Below, piece by piece: positions 37,428 through 45,055 of a stretch of DNA of 64,000 nucleotides. A model generated the notes under the pieces. That model was not told the DNA's origin, made no database searches, and saw only the letters and a program-made list of their open reading frames with translations. Each line of letters opens with the position of its first letter. The stretch's first letter is position 1. The DNA lies in assembly GCF_014356525.2 (NCBI RefSeq), contig NC_052508.1, positions 41,038,613-41,102,612 on the forward strand, in the 5' to 3' direction. The translations under genes and the position numbers were made by a program. The stretch comes from Nilaparvata lugens (Eukaryota; Arthropoda; Insecta; Hemiptera; Delphacidae).

Positions 37428-37951
37428 CTATCTTAAAATTGTTCTGGAGGCAAACCCAAGACCTAGCATTTCTGAGACTGCTGTTGCCACAAATAGTGGA
37501 GAACAGATGATGGAGCGACTCACAATACTCATGACAACCAAGATGGGAGAGATTGCCAACACCTCACGTCAAGAAATTGCTGCAGTGGCTGAGGTTCAAC
37601 ATGAAAATCGTCCACGCTGCTCAAACCTTCCAGCGCTTTATGGATGGTGTATTAAGGGATCTGGTTTTTTGTTTTGCTTACATTGATGATGTCCTGATTG
37701 CTTCAGAGTCAGAGGAGCAGCACTCCCAACACCTGAGATTGCTCTTTGAACGTTCGACCTCCTTTGGTGTTTTGATCAATCCAGGCAAGTGTCAATTAGG
37801 AGCAAACAGTGTAAAGTTCCCAGGATACTGTGTGTCAGGAGAAGGCACAAAGCCCTTAGCAGATGGAGTTGAAGCTGTACTGTCATATATCAAGCCTACA
37901 ACAGTCAAGGAGTTGAGAAGGTTCACAGGGATTTTTAACTTCTATCGCTGG
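37428..37951 (+). pseudogene. Gag C-terminus fused by deletion to RT C-terminal half
   Basis: From 37436, 'KIVLEANPRPSISE' and 'RLTILMTTKMGEI' continue gag. Near 37608 the text jumps, with a frame change, to RT: 'AAQTFQRFMDGVLRDL', 'FAYIDDVLIAS' (catalytic YIDD, about 37677) and 'LRRFTGIFNFYRW'. The gag zinc knuckle, protease and the first half of RT are missing, so an internal deletion of roughly 1-2 kb is inferred. The frame then runs into the left end of the Polinton-like element at 37952 and resumes at 43503. Confidence 0.75.
37946..37951 (+). other. Left 6-bp target duplication of the Polinton-like element
   Basis: CGCTGG here and CACTGG at 43497-43502 flank the element. Removing one copy plus the element restores an uninterrupted RT-RNase H connection reading. 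Six-base duplications are the Polinton norm. Confidence 0.8.
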
Positions 37952-38309
37952 AGTAGTGGGAAAGTGGGAGTACTGAAGAAAAGCTGCTCCAAAGCTGCCC
38001 CAAAGCTGGAGAAAAGCTGGAGAAAAGCTGCCACAAATCTGCCCCAAAGCTGATTCTTGGTTCTAACCTTGCCCAATTCAATGTAATCTGAACTAACTTA
38101 ACCTAGCCATACCCCTAATCTCACAATCAATCTCAAATGAAGATCCCCATTCCCACTTTTTTGGGAAAAACTAGATCCAGCTTTTTTTTATTTCTTGAAT
38201 AACTAAGAAACCGTTAATTTTACAAAAAAATTACAAGAATAACTTTTCCCAGTAAATCCAATTACGAATCCATTGACACCCCATTTGTCAAGATTGAACA
38301 AAAAATAAA
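37952..38309 (+). repeat. Left terminal inverted repeat (358 bp)
   Basis: Matches the reverse complement of 43139-43496 with about 5% difference. It contains tandem 'caaagctgccc' and 'ggagaaaagct' words near the tip and 'aactaacttaacctagcc' further in. Confidence 0.9.
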
Positions 38310-38407
38310 AATCAGTCCACATTCAGATCACCTATAACAGATCATGATTTCACTTTTTGCTGGAGGCTAGACATATTTTGTCGAGACAGAAAGTTGTTTG
38401 ACCTCTA

Positions 38408-38640
38408 CATGTGAAAGTGAGTCAAACAGCTTCCAGTTTCTTTGGTTAGAGTAAAGTGAAAGTGGGTTAAACAGCTTCCAGTTACAAACTATAAAAGCTG
38501 ATTTCTAGTCTGAAATTATTCACACTGTATTCAAGGAAGCAGTTGGAGGTGGACATACACATACTACAGCAAACATCTGTGCATATTCTCCTACCTTCCA
38601 AGTTGGAAACATGAAGGTGAGTGTTATCTATTATACTTTC
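38408..38640 (+). promoter_or_regulatory. Candidate outward/inward promoter with direct repeats
   Basis: Two direct repeats 'gtgaaagtg.gt.aaacagcttccagtt' (about 38410 and 38457) precede 'actataaaag' (TATA, about 38489) on the plus strand. About 30 bp downstream is 'attattcacactg', and 'atgaaggtgagt' near 38610 looks like a short first exon with a splice donor. No plus-strand ORF follows, presumably because the gene was deleted or lies on a spliced transcript. Confidence 0.4.
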
Positions 38641-38940
38641 TTGAGTTTATAATCTATTCTAATGTAATGATGTGGTAACAATTTTGAAATAATTTTTATG
38701 AGTGTAACAGTCCCTCCCCTTCTTACTCACTCACTCTGTTTCTTCCCTATCTCTACTGTGATAGTGCACAGAAAGGTGATTGGCATAAATCAACCTCAAA
38801 TTTACATATACTGTACAAGATTCCTTTCAAAGTTTATTGTTATATTGTCCTAATTTTTTCTTAAGCTTTTTCAAGAATATTTTTTTCCCAACACCAATAT
38901 TTTTCTTCTTTATCATTTTTATTATATATATTTTTTCTTA

Positions 38941-39369
38941 TCAACTATCCTCCTGAATGGGATAATATCCTACAATATTCAAATCAAAAGATTCAACTGA
39001 ATCAATTACCCATCCACTTCCATGCTGTATAAATCTATCTATTCTCTTCCACATATTTGCTTTAATCTCAAGCCATTGATTATCAAATTCATTTATATTA
39101 TCTTGAATTTGTAGAATTGTTTGTGTTCTTCCATGAAAGGTTGGTGAACTATTCATTTCATAATCTCCAACTAATTTCTTCAGCTTCAATTTGAGAGCAA
39201 CATACAATTTTATATTATTATTGGACTTTTTAGCTTCTTTTAAACAGATATCAAGTACAATTGGTTTCAATTTTTGAAATATTGTATCTGGATCTGTAGT
39301 ATCTATTTTTTTCCATCTATATAGGAGACATTCACCATTAAAAGCTTGTGTCTTTTCAAAACTCTCCAT
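38941..39369 (-). pseudogene. Polinton PolB N-terminal fragment (probable)
   Basis: 142 codons from an ATG at 39369. The C-terminal 'FIQHGSGWVIDSV' followed by 'NIVGYYPIQ' matches the wording I associate with the start of protein-primed DNA polymerase B in arthropod Polinton-like elements. The usual continuation and all exonuclease and polymerase motifs are absent. The ORF ends 570 bp from the left TIR, so over 900 residues are lost. Identification is from memory of the family and is moderate. Confidence 0.45.
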
Positions 39370-39479
39370 ACCAGTTATTATTTTTATTATAGTAAAAAAT
39401 TACTGGGTCTGGTTAACCAAACCTACAATTTTTTTCTAGTTGTACTCACCCACACATACAGTACATTTTTCTTACATGT

Positions 39480-39721
39480 TATTTCCACACCAAAATTTGA
39501 ATTTATTTTTAGAAGAGGGTGGGAATTGTTGGAGTAAGTTTGAATCAGTTAAATTATTCCAATGTCTCCTATCATTGAGATCAACATTCTGTGGTAGATA
39601 ATATGAATCAATATTTTTTTGCTAAACTAACTATATTTTGTAATATATTGATTAATTCTTCAGTCTCTTGATTTCTAGTTTGTTTTCTACTCAAATGGCA
39701 TCCAAATTTATCAATACTCAT
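39480..39721 (-). pseudogene. Small-protein family, copy 3 (degenerate)
   Basis: Starts 'MSIDKFGCHLSRKQ' at 39721 and stops at 39608 after 37 codons. Nucleotide similarity to the end of copy 1 continues to about 39490 ('aattgttggagtaagtttgaatcag'). Unknown function. Confidence 0.5.
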
Positions 39722-39736
39722 GTTTTTAATATTGTA

Positions 39737-40006
39737 TTAAACTTCATGTTTATATATGAATTTTTCATCAAACCAAGCTCTGAAGAACCAGGGTTGTACT
39801 CTTTCAGCAGAATACTTTTTATACTTTGATAATAATTGTGGATCTGACATTGCTTCATATTGATCATTCTTATTAAGATCGATTTAAGGTATATTATGAG
39901 CAGCTAATAGTTTGTATTGTATAATCCTTATTGAATTTTTAATTTCAATATTAATATAATTATTATTACTATCATGCAAATATCGACCACATTTATCAAT
40001 AGACAT
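39737..40006 (-). pseudogene. Small-protein family, copy 2 with one in-frame stop
   Basis: Starts 'MSIDKCGRYLHDSNNN' and reads 40 codons to TAA at 39884-39886. The same frame continues to 39737 ('YSAERVQPWFFRAWF'), making a 90-codon unit that parallels copy 1 in length and layout. Function unknown. Confidence 0.5.
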
Positions 40007-40056
40007 TGCACAATAACAGTTATATATTTTTTCTATAATACTAAATTTCCAAATTA

Positions 40057-41097
40057 TTAAATTATTCCAATTTCACGTAACTCTTCAATAATAAATGCAA
40101 TTTTAGAATTGTGTCCAGTGTGTCCTGCTAGTTTAGAATTTACTAACAACTCTAATCTTTCACATAATTCATTTGGATCATCCCAATAGACACAATTCAT
40201 TTTCATTTTCTTCTTTGGTAATTCAATTTGCATATCTTCTTCTACTCCTTCCACATGCATTCCTCCTCTACCAGAGATAGGTTTCTTCTTAGATATCTTT
40301 GGAGGAAATAAATTTTTGATTATACTTGTGTATTTATACCCATGATTCCTTTTAACACATCCCAAACTATCAAGATGAACTCTAATTATTTCAAGTATTC
40401 ATTTATAGGTTTTTAAATCTTTCCTACCATAAATAAATGTATCTGGTACCGCTTTGAATAGTAATTCCAATAGACCATGTGTGAGAGTAAATGAATGTTG
40501 GTTATCATTTATATTATCATTATTTTCAAATCTGACTACTTTATCACCAATTTGCCACTCATCAATTTCGGGGTTGAAGTGAACACCATATATATTACCT
40601 CTTTTTGTTGATCTCATGAAATTGTTCATATAAGTAGATACACTGCGCCTACGTGCAGATGATTTTAGTCTTTGGAGACTTGTATCAAATATATTTCTTG
40701 AACCATGTTCTTTATTTGATTCTTCTTCTACTGATACTTCTCCATCATTATCATCATCTACTCTATTTTCTTCTTCATCTTCTTATTCTTCATCATCCAA
40801 TTCTCCATCATCTAATTCTTCTTCTTTTTCTTGTTTTAATTCTTCTTTTTCCTTTTCAATAGTTGCTTCTAGAAAAAGTTGTTTCAATTGTTTCAATGAT
40901 TCTGTAATAGGTTTAAATTGTTTTTGAAAGTTCTCCTCCTCACTTGCTACATCACCTGATAATTGACGGTGCTTTTGGAGTATTGAATCACGCAGTTGTT
41001 TAATATTTTTCTTGAGTGCACTCAACTCTTTCAAATCTTTCCTATACATTTTTATATTACTGTATAAATTTATTAAAACCAATTCTATATCTACCAT
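40057..41097 (-). pseudogene. Coiled-coil protein with DUF8207-like domain, two nonsense codons
   Basis: One frame spans 347 codons, broken by TAA near 40783 and TGA near 40399. Layout: N-terminal coiled coil ('LKELSALKKNIKQLRDSIL'), a highly acidic stretch ('KEELKQEKEEELDD'), a central domain ('IYGVHFNPEIDEWQIGDKVV', 'LTHGLLELLFKAVPD') and a C-terminal module ('YWDDPNELCERLELLV', 'HTGHNSKIAFIIEELREIGI'). The central domain belongs to a family of arthropod element-borne proteins that I recall as DUF8207. A structural or virion role is plausible but unproven. A divergent homologue lies at 57940-58861. Confidence 0.7.
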
Positions 41098-41758
41098 TAC
41101 TTCTAGTACACTCTTTGTTTATAACTAGAAATGTGTTATTTTTTTTCCAAGCTTGAGCACACATTTCTTCAAATTCTCTCTTATTCATATCAGGATAAAT
41201 ATGATCAAAATATATGTGTGTTAAATTATGATTATCTTGTTTAAATAGAACAATCAAGTTTGTGTTATCACGAATTAACTGCTTGGGTATACTGGAATAA
41301 GTTTGAGAAATGTAGAAACAATCAATATCATTATGTCTACCCATACTGAAATAGTTGCGGATATTCTGTTGATTTTCCATACAAATATCATCAAAAATCA
41401 TAACTGAATTTGGGTGTGCATCATTTGGGTGTGGTATTTCATCATTATCTTGATACAAGTTGAAGTCAATTCCAGGTATTTGTATCATAATCTGCTTTAG
41501 AAGTTGGTATTTATCTTGTTGATGTGATTTGGTGAATACATATAAGTTTGAAAACTTGACACCATTCTGTGCAAATAGTAAATTGAATACTGTATTTGTT
41601 GTCCCAGAATTACTTGGACCACAAACAATACATCTTCTGGAATTTGGTAAAAGTTTGCTGTGTCTGTGATAATTGATATTCTTCTTAGTAAGGAATTTAT
41701 CAAAATTCATGACAGGTGATTTTGATTGATGTTCTTCCAATTTCAGCATATTTTTCAT
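41057..41758 (-). pseudogene. Polinton packaging-type ATPase with altered Walker A
   Basis: 233 codons, intact frame, overlapping the next gene by 41 bp. Walker A reads 'CGPSNSGTTN' where the family has GK[ST], so the nucleotide-binding Lys is Thr, one base change. Walker B-like 'SVMIFDDICM' and the conserved 'YFSMGRHNDIDCFYISQTYS' and 'IPKQLIRDNTNLI' identify the FtsK/HerA-type DNA-packaging ATPase of this element group, which pumps DNA into capsids. With the Lys lost the copy is probably inactive even though its frame is open. Confidence 0.75.
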
Positions 41759-41762
41759 TATA

Positions 41763-42692
41763 TTACGTTATATCATCACCTTCAACCCATGAATTATAAG
41801 ATTTATCGAATCCAAGCCATTTGAGATACAATTTACTACCCTTTTTCTTTAATACTTTTTCAATGAGGAATATATCTGGATATTTTGTTTTATTCATTTC
41901 ATATTCATAGAATGTACCCTTGATAATTCCATTGTTCATATCTTTTAATCTATAAGTAAAGGGTATAGTGGGGAGAACATTTTGTATGGTGAAAATCTCA
42001 TTTGTCCAGTTTGGGAGATAACCTTTCTCAAATATTGATTTGTATCAACTAATGTGTACCCTATCACCAATTCTATATTCTGGTTTACTTTGATTATCAA
42101 TTTTACATTGTGCACTTTTATCTAAATTCATTGGTATATATTTTTCATTTTCTTCATTTACATCAATTAGTTCCATATTAATGCTATGATGTGTGGTGTT
42201 GTTATATTTTAAGATAAGTTTTGGTAATAGTTCTAGCCATCCATGATTACCCTGTATAGTGAATTCATGGAACATATTCTCTTTAAGAGTTCTGTTGAAA
42301 CGTTCACAAATAGCGGCTTTATTATCACTATATGTTATGTAATGATTGATCTTATATGTTTTGAAGAGATTCTGAACAGTTGTGTTGTAGAACTCTTTAC
42401 CTGCATCAGTTTGAAAATTGATAATCTTATGTTTTTTGAGTATTGGTTTCAATGCTGCTGCCACCTCATTTCCAGTTTTAGTTTTCATTGGTATTGCAAA
42501 TGCAAATTCACTGAAACAGTTAATCACAGTTAGTATGTATCTGAAGTTCTTATTCAATGTGCTATAGTTGGACTTGTCAACAATATCAGCTTGATATAAA
42601 TCTGTAAGACCTTTTATTTCAGTGCGAAGTGTGAGGAAATTACGTCTGACTCTACCATGTAGCTCATGTGCAAGTTTCTCTCTTGTGGACAT
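41763..42692 (-). pseudogene. Polinton integrase with chromodomain, one nonsense codon
   Basis: 310 codons in one frame with a TGA near 42045. Core: 'LYQADIVDK' (first Asp), 'NFQTDAGKEFYN' (second Asp) and 'AAICERFNRTLKEN' (Glu), a complete DDE triad of a retroviral-type integrase. After the TGA the frame continues with 'GYLPNWTNEIFTI' and a chromodomain-like 'KVLKKKGSKLYLKWLGFDKS'. The enzyme joins element ends to target DNA with 6-bp staggering. It ends five bases before the ATPase start, suggesting co-transcription. Confidence 0.8.
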
Positions 42693-42742
42693 TCCTTTTT
42701 AAATATACAAAGTTGAGGTATCCAGGTGGGGTGGGAGATAAT

Positions 42743-43006
42743 CTATTCTTCCATATTTATCACATTTTTTTCATACCATTCTTTAAAAGAGATTCCAGAA
42801 GAGAGTGAGAATTGTTGAATCAAGTTTGAATCAGTCATATACTTCCACTTTTTTTCGTTATTGAAAATAATGTTTGGAATATAGGGTGCAGCTAATGGTA
42901 TGATTTGTAGAACATAGAAAAAATTCTGAATCAGATTTTTAATATCAACATTAATATCATTATTATTTCTATCATGCAAATATCGACCAAATTTATCAAT
43001 ACTCAT
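42743..43006 (-). CDS. Small-protein family, copy 1 (87 aa)
   Basis: Intact ORF from ATG at 43006: 'MSIDKFGRYLHDRNNND', then a hydrophobic centre ('FFYVLQIIPLAAPYIPNIIF') and an aromatic/acidic tail. It is the first gene inside the right TIR and lies 50 bp upstream of the integrase. Two degenerate paralogues lie at 39480-40006. I do not know its function. The hydrophobic centre may be a membrane segment. Confidence 0.55.
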   Translation of the reverse strand: MSIDKFGRYLHDRNNNDINVDIKNLIQNFFYVLQIIPLAAPYIPNIIFNNEKKWKYMTDSNLIQQFSLSSGISFKEWYEKNVINMEE

Positions 43007-43138
43007 GAACTATTTTTATTATGGATGAGAACTGATCCTTATTTTCTGTTCAATCCTAACAAATGGATTTACAGGGAGAAGTTATCCTTGGTTTCTTAGT
43101 TATTCAAGAAATCATGATCTACTTTTCTCATGAGATCC

Positions 43139-43496
43139 TTATTTTTTGTTCAATCTTGACAAATGGGGTGTCAATGGATTTGTAATTGGATTCACTAGAA
43201 AAAGTTATTCATGTAATTTTTTTTGTAAAATTAACGGTTTCTTAGTTATTCAAGAAATAAAAAAAAGCTGGATCTAGTTTTTTCCAAAAAAGTGGGAATG
43301 GGGATCTTCATTTGAGATTTATTGTGAGATTAGGGGTATGGCTAGGTTAAGTTAGTTCAGATTACATTGGATTGGGCAAGGTTAGAACCAAGAATCAGCT
43401 TTGGGGCAGATTTGGGGGCAGCTTTGAGCAGCTTTTCTCCAGCTTTGGGGCAGCTTTGGAGCAGCTTTTCTTCAGTACTCTCACTTTCCCACTACT
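43139..43496 (-). repeat. Right terminal inverted repeat (358 bp)
   Basis: Inverse of 37952-38309. Just inside it (43060-43115) part of the TIR wording ('ggtttcttagttattcaagaaatcatgat') recurs, suggesting a subterminal duplication. Confidence 0.9.
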
Positions 43497-43502
43497 CACT
43501 GG

Positions 43503-45055
43503 TTCCTCCCCAATGCTGCATCTCAGCAAAGCCCTGTCGATGATTTGCTGAAGGACAAGGTGAAAGGCAACTCACCCATCAATTGGACAAAAGACAGTGA
43601 AAAAGCATTCCAGCAGTGTAAGCAGAGCCTCAGTGATGCAGCATTACTTGCACATCCTATTCCAGGTGCCCACCTTGCCATCATGTCAGATGCCTCAGAT
43701 TATGCAGTGGGACCAGTGCTGCAGCAAAAGTCAGAAAACAATTGGCAACTACTCTTATTCTTTTCGAAAAAGCCAAGTCCTGCTCAACAGAAATACAATG
43801 CCTATGACAAGGAGCTAACTGCAATATACTTGGCCATCAAATACTTCCAACACATGGTGGAGGGCAGGGACTTTACTATCCACACTGATCCAAAGCCACT
43901 GACCTTTGCCTACCAACGGAAACCAGAAAAGTGTTCACCTCACCAATTCCGCCACTTGGAGTACATAGGTCAGTACACTACTGAGATCCGACATATCTCT
44001 GGTTGTGACAATGTAGTAGCTGACAATCTCTCTCAAGAATCGATGAACTCTTCACATATTTGGATCATGAAGCTCTGGCCAGAGCACAAACCCATGATGA
44101 AGAAGTTCAGCATTTTTCGAAGCCTGACTCTGTCATCAAGCTGGAAAGAGTCCCAATACCTGGTCTGAAAACCTCATTGCTATGTGACTGCTCAACATCC
44201 ACACCTCGCCCTTTTGTCACCAAGGACCTCAGATGGGCTGCATTTAATGCAGTGCATGGACTTTCACATCCAGGAAGGGATGCCACAGTCCATCTGGTCA
44301 TCCATGAAAGCAGACTGCCGAAATTGGGCCAGAGACTGTCTATCTTGTCAGAAATCAGAAGTGACAAGACACAATTGGCCACCAGTGGGTACATTCACTG
44401 CTCCATCTGCAAGATTTGAACATGTTCACATCGATTTGATAGGACCATTGCCTGTTTCAGAAGGATATATTGCCTCACATGTGTTGACAGATTCTCCCGC
44501 TGGCCAGAGGTTGTCCCTTTGGGAAATATTGAGGCTGAAACTGTAGCTAGAGCCCTGTTCACTACTTGTATCTCTCGCTTTGGCACACTCCTCCACATCA
44601 CAACTGATAGAGGCCAACAATTTGAATCCAACTTATTCCTGCACCTTGGGAACCTTTCTGGAACCACCCGCTTCAGGACCACTGCATATCATCCATCAGC
44701 AAATGGCTTGGTTGGAAGGCTCCACCATCAGCTCAAGGCTGCAATCAGATGTCATGCAAATGGACGTTGGACTGAAATACTGCCAGCTATTCTCCTTGGC
44801 ATACGAGCAGCTTGGCGTGAAGATTTCAAGGCATCTACTGCAGAAATGGTGTATGGTCAGGTTCTTTGCCTTCCTGGAGAGTTTCTGACACCAAACCTCC
44901 CAACTGGGATGGAAAGTATCAAAGTATCAAAAGAAAGTATCAAAGAAGATGACCATCCCAACTGGGATGGTCATACACATCCATCAACATTTTTGACCAA
45001 CCTTCGAAGCTATTTCAATGCTCTTAGAACAGTAAAGGGTGCATGCCATGGGTAG
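43503..45055 (+). pseudogene. pol: CsRn1-type RNase H and integrase, frameshifted
   Basis: RNase H residues are in 'IMSDASDYAVGPVL' (Asp), 'YDKELTAIYLAI' (Glu) and 'IHTDPKPLTF' (Asp). Three frame changes (about 44110, 44300 and 44510) then cut the integrase: zinc-binding 'HGLSHPGRDATVH' and 'CRNWARDCLSCQ', core 'HVHIDLIGPLP' (Asp) and 'TTDRGQQFES' (Asp). The third catalytic position reads 'SANGLVGRLHHQ', with Gly where the DDE Glu is expected. Confidence 0.8.
44949..44974. repeat. 12-bp-arm palindrome in the integrase region
   Basis: 'atgaccatccca' and 'tgggatggtcat' are separated by two bases. 'cccaactgggatgg' also occurs 50 bp upstream, so this looks like a local templated duplication. Confidence 0.75.

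What the first reader, a model, noticed from the sequence alone, without database searches (positions are those of the whole stretch)
37952..43496. Compact 5.5-kb Polinton-like element with intact TIRs and 6-bp target duplication
Ends are near perfect (358-bp TIRs; CGCTGG/CACTGG), yet the interior keeps only integrase, ATPase, a coiled-coil protein, small genes and the start of PolB. It is either a non-autonomous miniature mobilised in trans or a post-insertion deletion. A miniature Polinton lineage with a defined gene set would be unusual.
Basis: partly seen in the sequence, partly recalled or inferred. Interest (0 to 1): 0.75.

Follow-up and report, generated by a model that had tools for sequence, protein, structure and literature searches.

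The report
Decayed Polinton and capsid-only mini-Polintons
The 5.5-kb element is one old Polinton copy that lost its middle through a deletion not found at any other place examined, but the same genome holds a separate family of 3.3-3.6-kb mini-Polintons, many with an open virus-capsid gene and with no replication or integration gene detected.

Summary
Boundaries confirmed: 37952-43496, ~358-bp TIRs (95.8% identical), duplication CGCTGG/CACTGG. Joining the flanks restores an open Ty3/gypsy pol frame. In a 15.87-kb relative (TSD AATAGT) the two sides of window 38843/38848 lie 10,369 bp apart, with PolB, capsid, penton-like and protease-like genes between. None of 39 other scored places spans that junction (40 of 74 candidates scored). 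So this copy is a private internal-deletion derivative. The 'start of PolB' is a short gene with the same stop in three relatives. Integrase and ATPase carry damaging changes absent from both relatives compared. A miniature lineage does exist, with another gene set: 13 TIR-bounded elements of 1.5-3.6 kb, 10 with perfect 6-bp TSDs; 13 of 13 hold capsid sequence (PF21738, E 1.5e-92 in L053), 11 of 13 the MSVDKFGR module, and none a detected integrase, ATPase, PolB or penton piece. Forty capsid loci scored at 94% or more; 18 of 25 examined keep a 402-aa frame, and changes shared between copies lean synonymous (10 of 18, p 0.013). Capsid genes kept by non-autonomous Polintons are the real surprise.

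The parts
37946..37951 (.). left target duplication CGCTGG (in gypsy pol)
37952..38309 (+). left terminal inverted repeat, about 358 bp, with 11-bp subrepeats
   Evidence: 82 matches in this genome from the best 40 of 954 candidates
38330..38843 (+). left (PolB-side) subterminal region of the full-length element
   Evidence: held, wholly or in part, by 36 of 39 other scored places; 96% at C1:63720448-63720958 next to the left TIR of the 15.87-kb copy
38843..38848 (.). deletion junction with about 7 bp of filler; partners lie 10,369 bp apart in the C1 relative
   Evidence: 0 of 39 other scored places span it
38848..38937 (-). stump of a phospholipase-A2-like gene (PF08398 2.4e-11 in the C12 relative), cut by the deletion
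38941..39369 (-). short gene of about 140 aa, not a PolB cut by the deletion
   Evidence: same stop in C1, C12 and C4 relatives; no protein relative at E<=0.001 among proteins of similar length
39475..39721 (-). broken MSIDKFG-type module
39740..40006 (-). second broken MSIDK-type module
   Evidence: 72-nt stretch 90% identical to 42935-43006
40060..41118 (-). acidic coiled-coil frame; if one gene (inferred), interrupted by two in-frame stops
41057..41758 (-). packaging-type ATPase; Walker A lysine lost in this copy
41766..42692 (-). RVE integrase with one internal stop (codon 216)
42743..43006 (-). 87-aa MSIDKFGRYL protein (called KF here)
   Evidence: related module in L058 and in most minis
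43139..43496 (-). right terminal inverted repeat
43497..43502 (.). right target duplication CACTGG

Best explanation
The window element is an old Polinton/Maverick copy that inserted with a 6-bp target duplication into a Ty3/gypsy pol gene. Compared with relatives it has lost roughly 9-10 kb (PolB, capsid, penton-like, protease-like genes and most of a PLA2-like gene) by one end-joining type deletion at 38843/38848. Its remaining genes are damaged: integrase stop, ATPase Walker A, two stops in the coiled-coil frame. It is an inactive derivative, private as far as scored. Shown: insertion, TSD, missing block, absence of the junction from 39 other scored places, damage. Inferred: that the deletion came after insertion. 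Separately, the same genome carries a non-autonomous family of 3.3-3.6-kb 'capsid minis'. These have two ends of the integrase-side type, one leading into a double-jelly-roll capsid gene and the other into the KF gene. They most likely moved with integration and replication proteins supplied in trans by full-length relatives (inferred).
For: Junction and 10,369-bp spacing. Full-length relative with TSD AATAGT. Its gene content. Empty site. Private changes are 47 of 1,891 sites (2.5%) inside the element against 12 and 5 of 356 in the two TIR arms (mean 2.4%), so interior and ends look equally old. Integrase stop and lost Walker A lysine are absent from both relatives compared, L058 and L067. 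Minis.
Against: Only 40 of 74 candidates were scored for the left region, so another copy with the same junction could be among the 34 unscored. A deletion before insertion (a defective genome that integrated once) would look the same. The helper for the minis was not identified: the genome-wide integrase search did not complete.
Confidence: 0.87

Rival explanations
1. The deletion arose before insertion: a defective, 5.5-kb genome was copied and integrated once, in trans.
For: Intact TIRs and TSD; private changes inside are no more frequent than in the TIRs, so a short form could have integrated with its frames open; the genome has mobilised other short forms.
Against: Single occurrence of the junction among 40 scored places; end-joining type junction. 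Neither excludes it.
Confidence: 0.3
2. The 5.5-kb form is a multi-copy miniature lineage of its own.
For: Ends intact; L058 and L059 match 40457-43496 at 95.6%.
Against: The fetched stretches of L058/L059 show no match to window 38330-40457 other than short module repeats; the two are 99.8% identical duplicates of each other; 0 of 39 other scored places share the junction.
Confidence: 0.04
3. The capsid minis are ordinary deletion debris whose capsid gene is open only because the copies are young.
For: The 21 least diverged copies differ from L082 by 0 to 21 of 1,188 bases; changes seen in a single copy are not significantly biased to synonymous (16 of 41, p 0.09); several older pairs have dN/dS near 1 (up to 1.11); L053 and L079 are no more alike in the gene than in the flanks.
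Against: Changes shared by copies are biased to synonymous (10 of 18, p 0.013; 9 of 18 in an older set against 23 of 101 single-copy changes, p 0.023); L082 against seven older copies gives dN/dS 0.14-0.37, and capsid identity (98.4-98.7%) exceeds the flanks (93.6-95.8%) in three old-young comparisons; KF is broken in L083 and mostly gone in L084 while capsid is open.
Confidence: 0.4

Closest known systems
Polinton/Maverick (Polintoviricetes; animal adintovirus-like)
   Same: RVE integrase, packaging-type ATPase, TIRs, 6-bp TSD; the full-length C1 relative also has PolB, double-jelly-roll capsid and, by recalled resemblance, penton-like and protease-like frames.
   Different: The window copy lacks PolB, capsid, penton and protease; in the minis only capsid, KF and a weak remnant of the 140-aa gene were found.
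Fragmented Mavericks of Mayetiola destructor (PMC8504770, passages seen)
   Same: Short decayed Maverick copies (consensus sizes 600-4500 bp).
   Different: Those passages describe elements with only a polymerase or integrase domain; the passages seen do not describe a TIR-bounded, TSD-flanked family that keeps an open capsid gene.
MITEs and other non-autonomous DNA transposons (recalled)
   Same: TIRs and TSD kept, transposase lost, many copies.
   Different: MITEs have no coding capacity; many minis keep a capsid frame, with signs of selection.
Defective genomes with duplicated ends in protein-primed viruses such as adenovirus (recalled, no call)
   Same: Minis carry two copies of one genome end and long inverted arms.
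   Different: Minis are integrated, multi-copy and keep a gene.

Membership tests
Polinton/Maverick (window element) | long TIRs and 6-bp target duplication | tested here: met
   (duplication 5 of 6 now)
Polinton/Maverick (window element) | RVE integrase | tested here: met
   frame interrupted
Polinton/Maverick (window element) | FtsK/A32-type ATPase | tested here: met
   by homology to PF04665 proteins; Walker A lysine lost. The window protein itself had no PF04665 match at E<=1
Polinton/Maverick (window element) | protein-primed PolB | tested here: not met
   no PolB frame; a PolB piece is present in the C1 relative (L076). Membership rests on kinship with that relative (96% over the left region), not on an own PolB
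Polinton/Maverick (window element) | capsid and penton genes | tested here: not met
   no such frame; in C1 they lie in the segment lost here (penton by recalled resemblance)
5.5-kb miniature lineage | same internal junction at independent loci | tested here: not met
   0 of 39 other scored places; 34 candidates unscored
Non-autonomous Polinton family (3.3-3.6-kb minis) | same structure at independent loci with own TSDs | tested here: met
   13 TIR-bounded copies delimited, 10 with perfect and 2 with 5-of-6 TSDs, 1 without; 3.3-3.6 kb in 8 of the 13 (L051, L052, L053, L056, L057, L079, L080, L083), shorter in 5
Non-autonomous Polinton family (3.3-3.6-kb minis) | no integrase, ATPase, PolB or penton | tested here: met
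   0 of 18 capsid-bearing loci (of 24 scanned) hit at E<=1e-5 with the window integrase and ATPase and one C1 piece each of PolB and penton-like frame
MITE | no coding capacity | tested here: not met
   18 of 25 copies have a 402-aa capsid frame
Capsid-supplying satellite or split genome | capsid made from the mini and packaging it | not testable with these tools
   -

The most novel reading that the evidence does not exclude
The capsid minis are a maintained part of a split Polinton system. A 3.3-3.6-kb DNA with two integrase-side ends makes the major capsid protein from a terminal promoter, and depends on full-length relatives for replication and integration. Its capsid gene is kept by selection because its own packaging, or interference with the helper, depends on it. 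This would be a capsid-encoding satellite transposon.
Probability: 0.3. Interest if true: 0.85.

Novelty: new variant of a known kind. Interest (0 to 1): 0.6.

Why it matters
Whether animal Polintons act as viruses or only as transposons is still argued, and the capsid gene is a main argument. A non-autonomous lineage in which no polymerase or integrase was detected, but whose capsid frame is open in many little-diverged copies, offers a direct test: if the capsid were useless for spread, minis should be free to lose it. It also offers a naturally reduced system (392 candidate places in one genome, 40 of them scored) for studying trans-mobilisation, packaging and interference. The window element itself matters only as an ordinary deletion derivative and as the probe that led to the minis.

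Tried and rejected
Host-gene capture at 38330-38940: a TATA box and ATGAAG|gtgagt looked like a captured promoter and first exon. Rejected, because the region is the PolB-side end of the family, found at 36 other places. 'PolB cut by the deletion': rejected. Viral and prokaryote collections: ATPase queries gave no relative in IMG/VR or in genome contigs; the integrase alignment gave 20 IMG/VR loci with 19-47% matches to parts of the integrase core, which were dropped. The 142-aa protein gave no relatives; only proteins of similar length could be found that way. Capsid against PDB sequences: no hit at E<=1. Structure prediction was not tried, because loci from whole genomes are not on that tool's list of accepted sources.

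Literature: searches, of a library that lacks most subscription journals, listed no paper whose title or abstract start names a capsid-only or other non-autonomous Polinton family; most listed papers were not opened. Passages were seen in eight papers; none was read whole. The Starrett adintovirus paper and the Krupovic and Koonin review are not held.
Full report
1. The observation. The window lies at G000:C5:41038613-41102612 of an unnamed 1.085-Gb assembly. The element runs 37952-43496, starts AGTAGTGGGAAAGTG, has about 358-bp TIRs with 343 of 358 identical ungapped columns, and is flanked by CGCTGG/CACTGG. It interrupts a Ty3/gypsy pol gene: RVT_1 lies on the left and RNase H on the right, and joining the flanks minus one duplication gives one open frame over the stretch printed. 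The boundaries are therefore exact.

2. Its genes. All are on the minus strand: KF (87 aa, MSIDKFGRYL...), integrase, ATPase, a coiled-coil acidic frame, two broken KF-like modules, a gene of about 140 aa, and the stump of a PLA2-like gene. The integrase is 40-57% identical to the 120 proteins listed and has one internal stop. The ATPase is 76% identical to P0121 and has lost the Walker A lysine present in the 15 of 15 homologues aligned. In the two relatives compared, L058 and L067, the integrase has no stop in the aligned codons and the Walker motif is intact. Changes private to the window copy are 47 of 1,891 sites; the two TIR arms carry 12 and 5 private changes of 356. Interior and ends thus show about the same age, which fits decay since insertion.

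3. Full length or miniature? The left region 38330-38843 occurs, wholly or in part, at 36 of the 39 other scored places, and the piece just right of the junction at the remaining 3. None of the 39 spans the junction; 40 of 74 candidates were scored. A copy on C1 runs from 63720091 to 63735961 (15,871 bp, from the termini) and has TSD AATAGT on both sides. The two sides of the junction lie 10,369 bp apart in it, and about 9.3 kb (C12) and 10.5 kb (C4) apart in two others (from coordinates). Pieces of C1 hold a PolB part on the plus strand (PF03175), a capsid gene 68% identical to the mini capsid, and penton-like and protease-like frames, named by recall from their sequence (no Pfam hit). C1 also carries an inserted DUF7869 transposon, so 10.4 kb overstates what the window copy lost. 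The junction has about 7 bp of filler and no long homology. The window element is thus one full-length-type copy minus its middle.

4. The '142-aa PolB start'. In C1, C12 and C4 the same frame stops right after VESFDLNIVGYYPI; C12 and C4 are nearly identical to each other, and the C1 gene is itself broken further upstream. The next gene begins MIKKKNIGVGKK... or alike and is PLA2-like (PF08398 2.4e-11 in L073, the C12 piece). So this is a short gene of the family, and the deletion starts in the next gene. Its resemblance to PolB N-termini is recalled and untested (no hits).

5. A real miniature family. I fetched 20 stretches around high-scoring TIR matches and 6 around capsid matches. Of these 26, 24 were scanned for genes (L059 and L067 were left out: L059 duplicates L058, L067 holds a long run of N). 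Eighteen hold capsid sequence, and 0 of these 18 hold integrase, ATPase, or the PolB and penton-like pieces used, at E<=1e-5. Thirteen elements of 1,540-3,635 bp could be delimited by both termini: 10 with perfect 6-bp TSDs, all different (ATTGAG, CCTAGG, AAACAG, AACGTC, CTTGCG, CATTTC, TATTCC, TTCAAC, TATATA, CTTCTT), 2 with 5 of 6, and L051 with none. Different TSDs show independent insertions. Capsid sequence is in 13 of 13 (only a remnant in L055, partial in several) and the KF module in 11 of 13. The L053 capsid protein matches PF21738 at 1.5e-92. In the older copies many of these frames are broken.

6. Anatomy of the minis. In L052, L079, L080 and L083 the inverted arms (about 720-910 bp, 91-96% identical) end within 2 bases of the capsid start codon on one side and 6 bases before the KF start codon on the other (coordinates; the L052 capsid start is extrapolated). 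In the other four full-size copies the arm alignment breaks earlier (L051, L053, L056, L057). The two genes converge and share one leader. In C1 capsid and KF lie on the same strand, so the minis are not simple internal deletions. Both ends of the five minis compared match the integrase-side end of C1 further in (to base 383-415) than its PolB-side end (to 329-341); the gain of some 40-75 bases is modest. The region 38330-38843 of the PolB side shows no match in the 20 loci; L079-L084 were not tested for it. Minis therefore look like right-end/right-end chimeras. Template switching during replication is my inference.

7. Numbers and selection. The capsid query gave 392 candidates; the 40 scored, L053 itself included, are at 94% or more. 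This set is biased towards young, complete copies. Of 25 examined for the frame (20 plus L080-L084), 18 have an open 402-aa frame and 7 do not; 11 of the 40 were not looked at. Among the 21 of 25 least diverged, changes in a single copy are 16 of 41 synonymous (neutral expectation 0.28, p 0.09), and changes shared by copies 10 of 18 (p 0.013). In an older set of 10 copies, single-copy changes were 23 synonymous to 78 other and shared ones 9 to 9 (Fisher p 0.023). L082 against seven older copies gives dN/dS 0.14-0.37, and the three fixed young-old differences are all synonymous. Capsid identity is 98.4-98.7% where flanks are 93.6-95.8% in three old-young comparisons; in L053-L079 the gene (97.7%) is only as similar as its flanks (96.7 and 97.4%). 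Old pairwise dN/dS values range from 0.39 to 1.11, as expected if constraint ends at insertion. The picture is constraint while spreading and release after landing. It is suggestive, not proven; the tests are my own scripts and treat shared changes as independent.

8. What it is called. The window element descends from a Polinton but lacks PolB and capsid genes itself. The minis are non-autonomous Polintons and not MITEs, because many still code. The known Polinton gene set is from passages in PMC4028283 and PMC11071308. No named precedent for capsid-only minis appeared in the listings of searches.

Noticed in passing
G000:C11:19389689-19391792: Tandem array of a unit repeated every 144 bp that is the inner part of the Polinton TIR, 15 listed units (the last partial) at 84-89%: a satellite-like array grown from a transposon end.
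   Followed up: no
window 37553-45055: The host sequence of the insertion is a decayed Ty3/gypsy pol gene split by the Polinton.
   Followed up: yes
L058, L059 (C4:45395500-45402300 and C4:45057000-45063500): Two 99.8% identical 6.5-kb stretches in opposite orientation about 344 kb apart, each with half a Polinton of the window's own TIR subtype next to an unrelated frame (604 aa open in L059, broken in L058) that looks like a retroelement envelope by recall, not tested. Inverted duplication or assembly duplicate.
   Followed up: partly
L077:1615-3404 (C1 copy): A transposon with a DUF7869 (PF25273 2e-13) frame sits inside the full-length C1 Polinton.
   Followed up: partly
window 37962-38063 and 43396-43475: The outer TIR is built of 11-bp repeats (AAAGCTGCCCC type), and the arms differ there.
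   Followed up: no
window 42935-43006, 39935-40006, 39692-39722: Three copies of the MSIDKFG-encoding start; the two 72-nt copies lie exactly 3,000 bases apart, suggesting duplication of this module within the element.
   Followed up: partly
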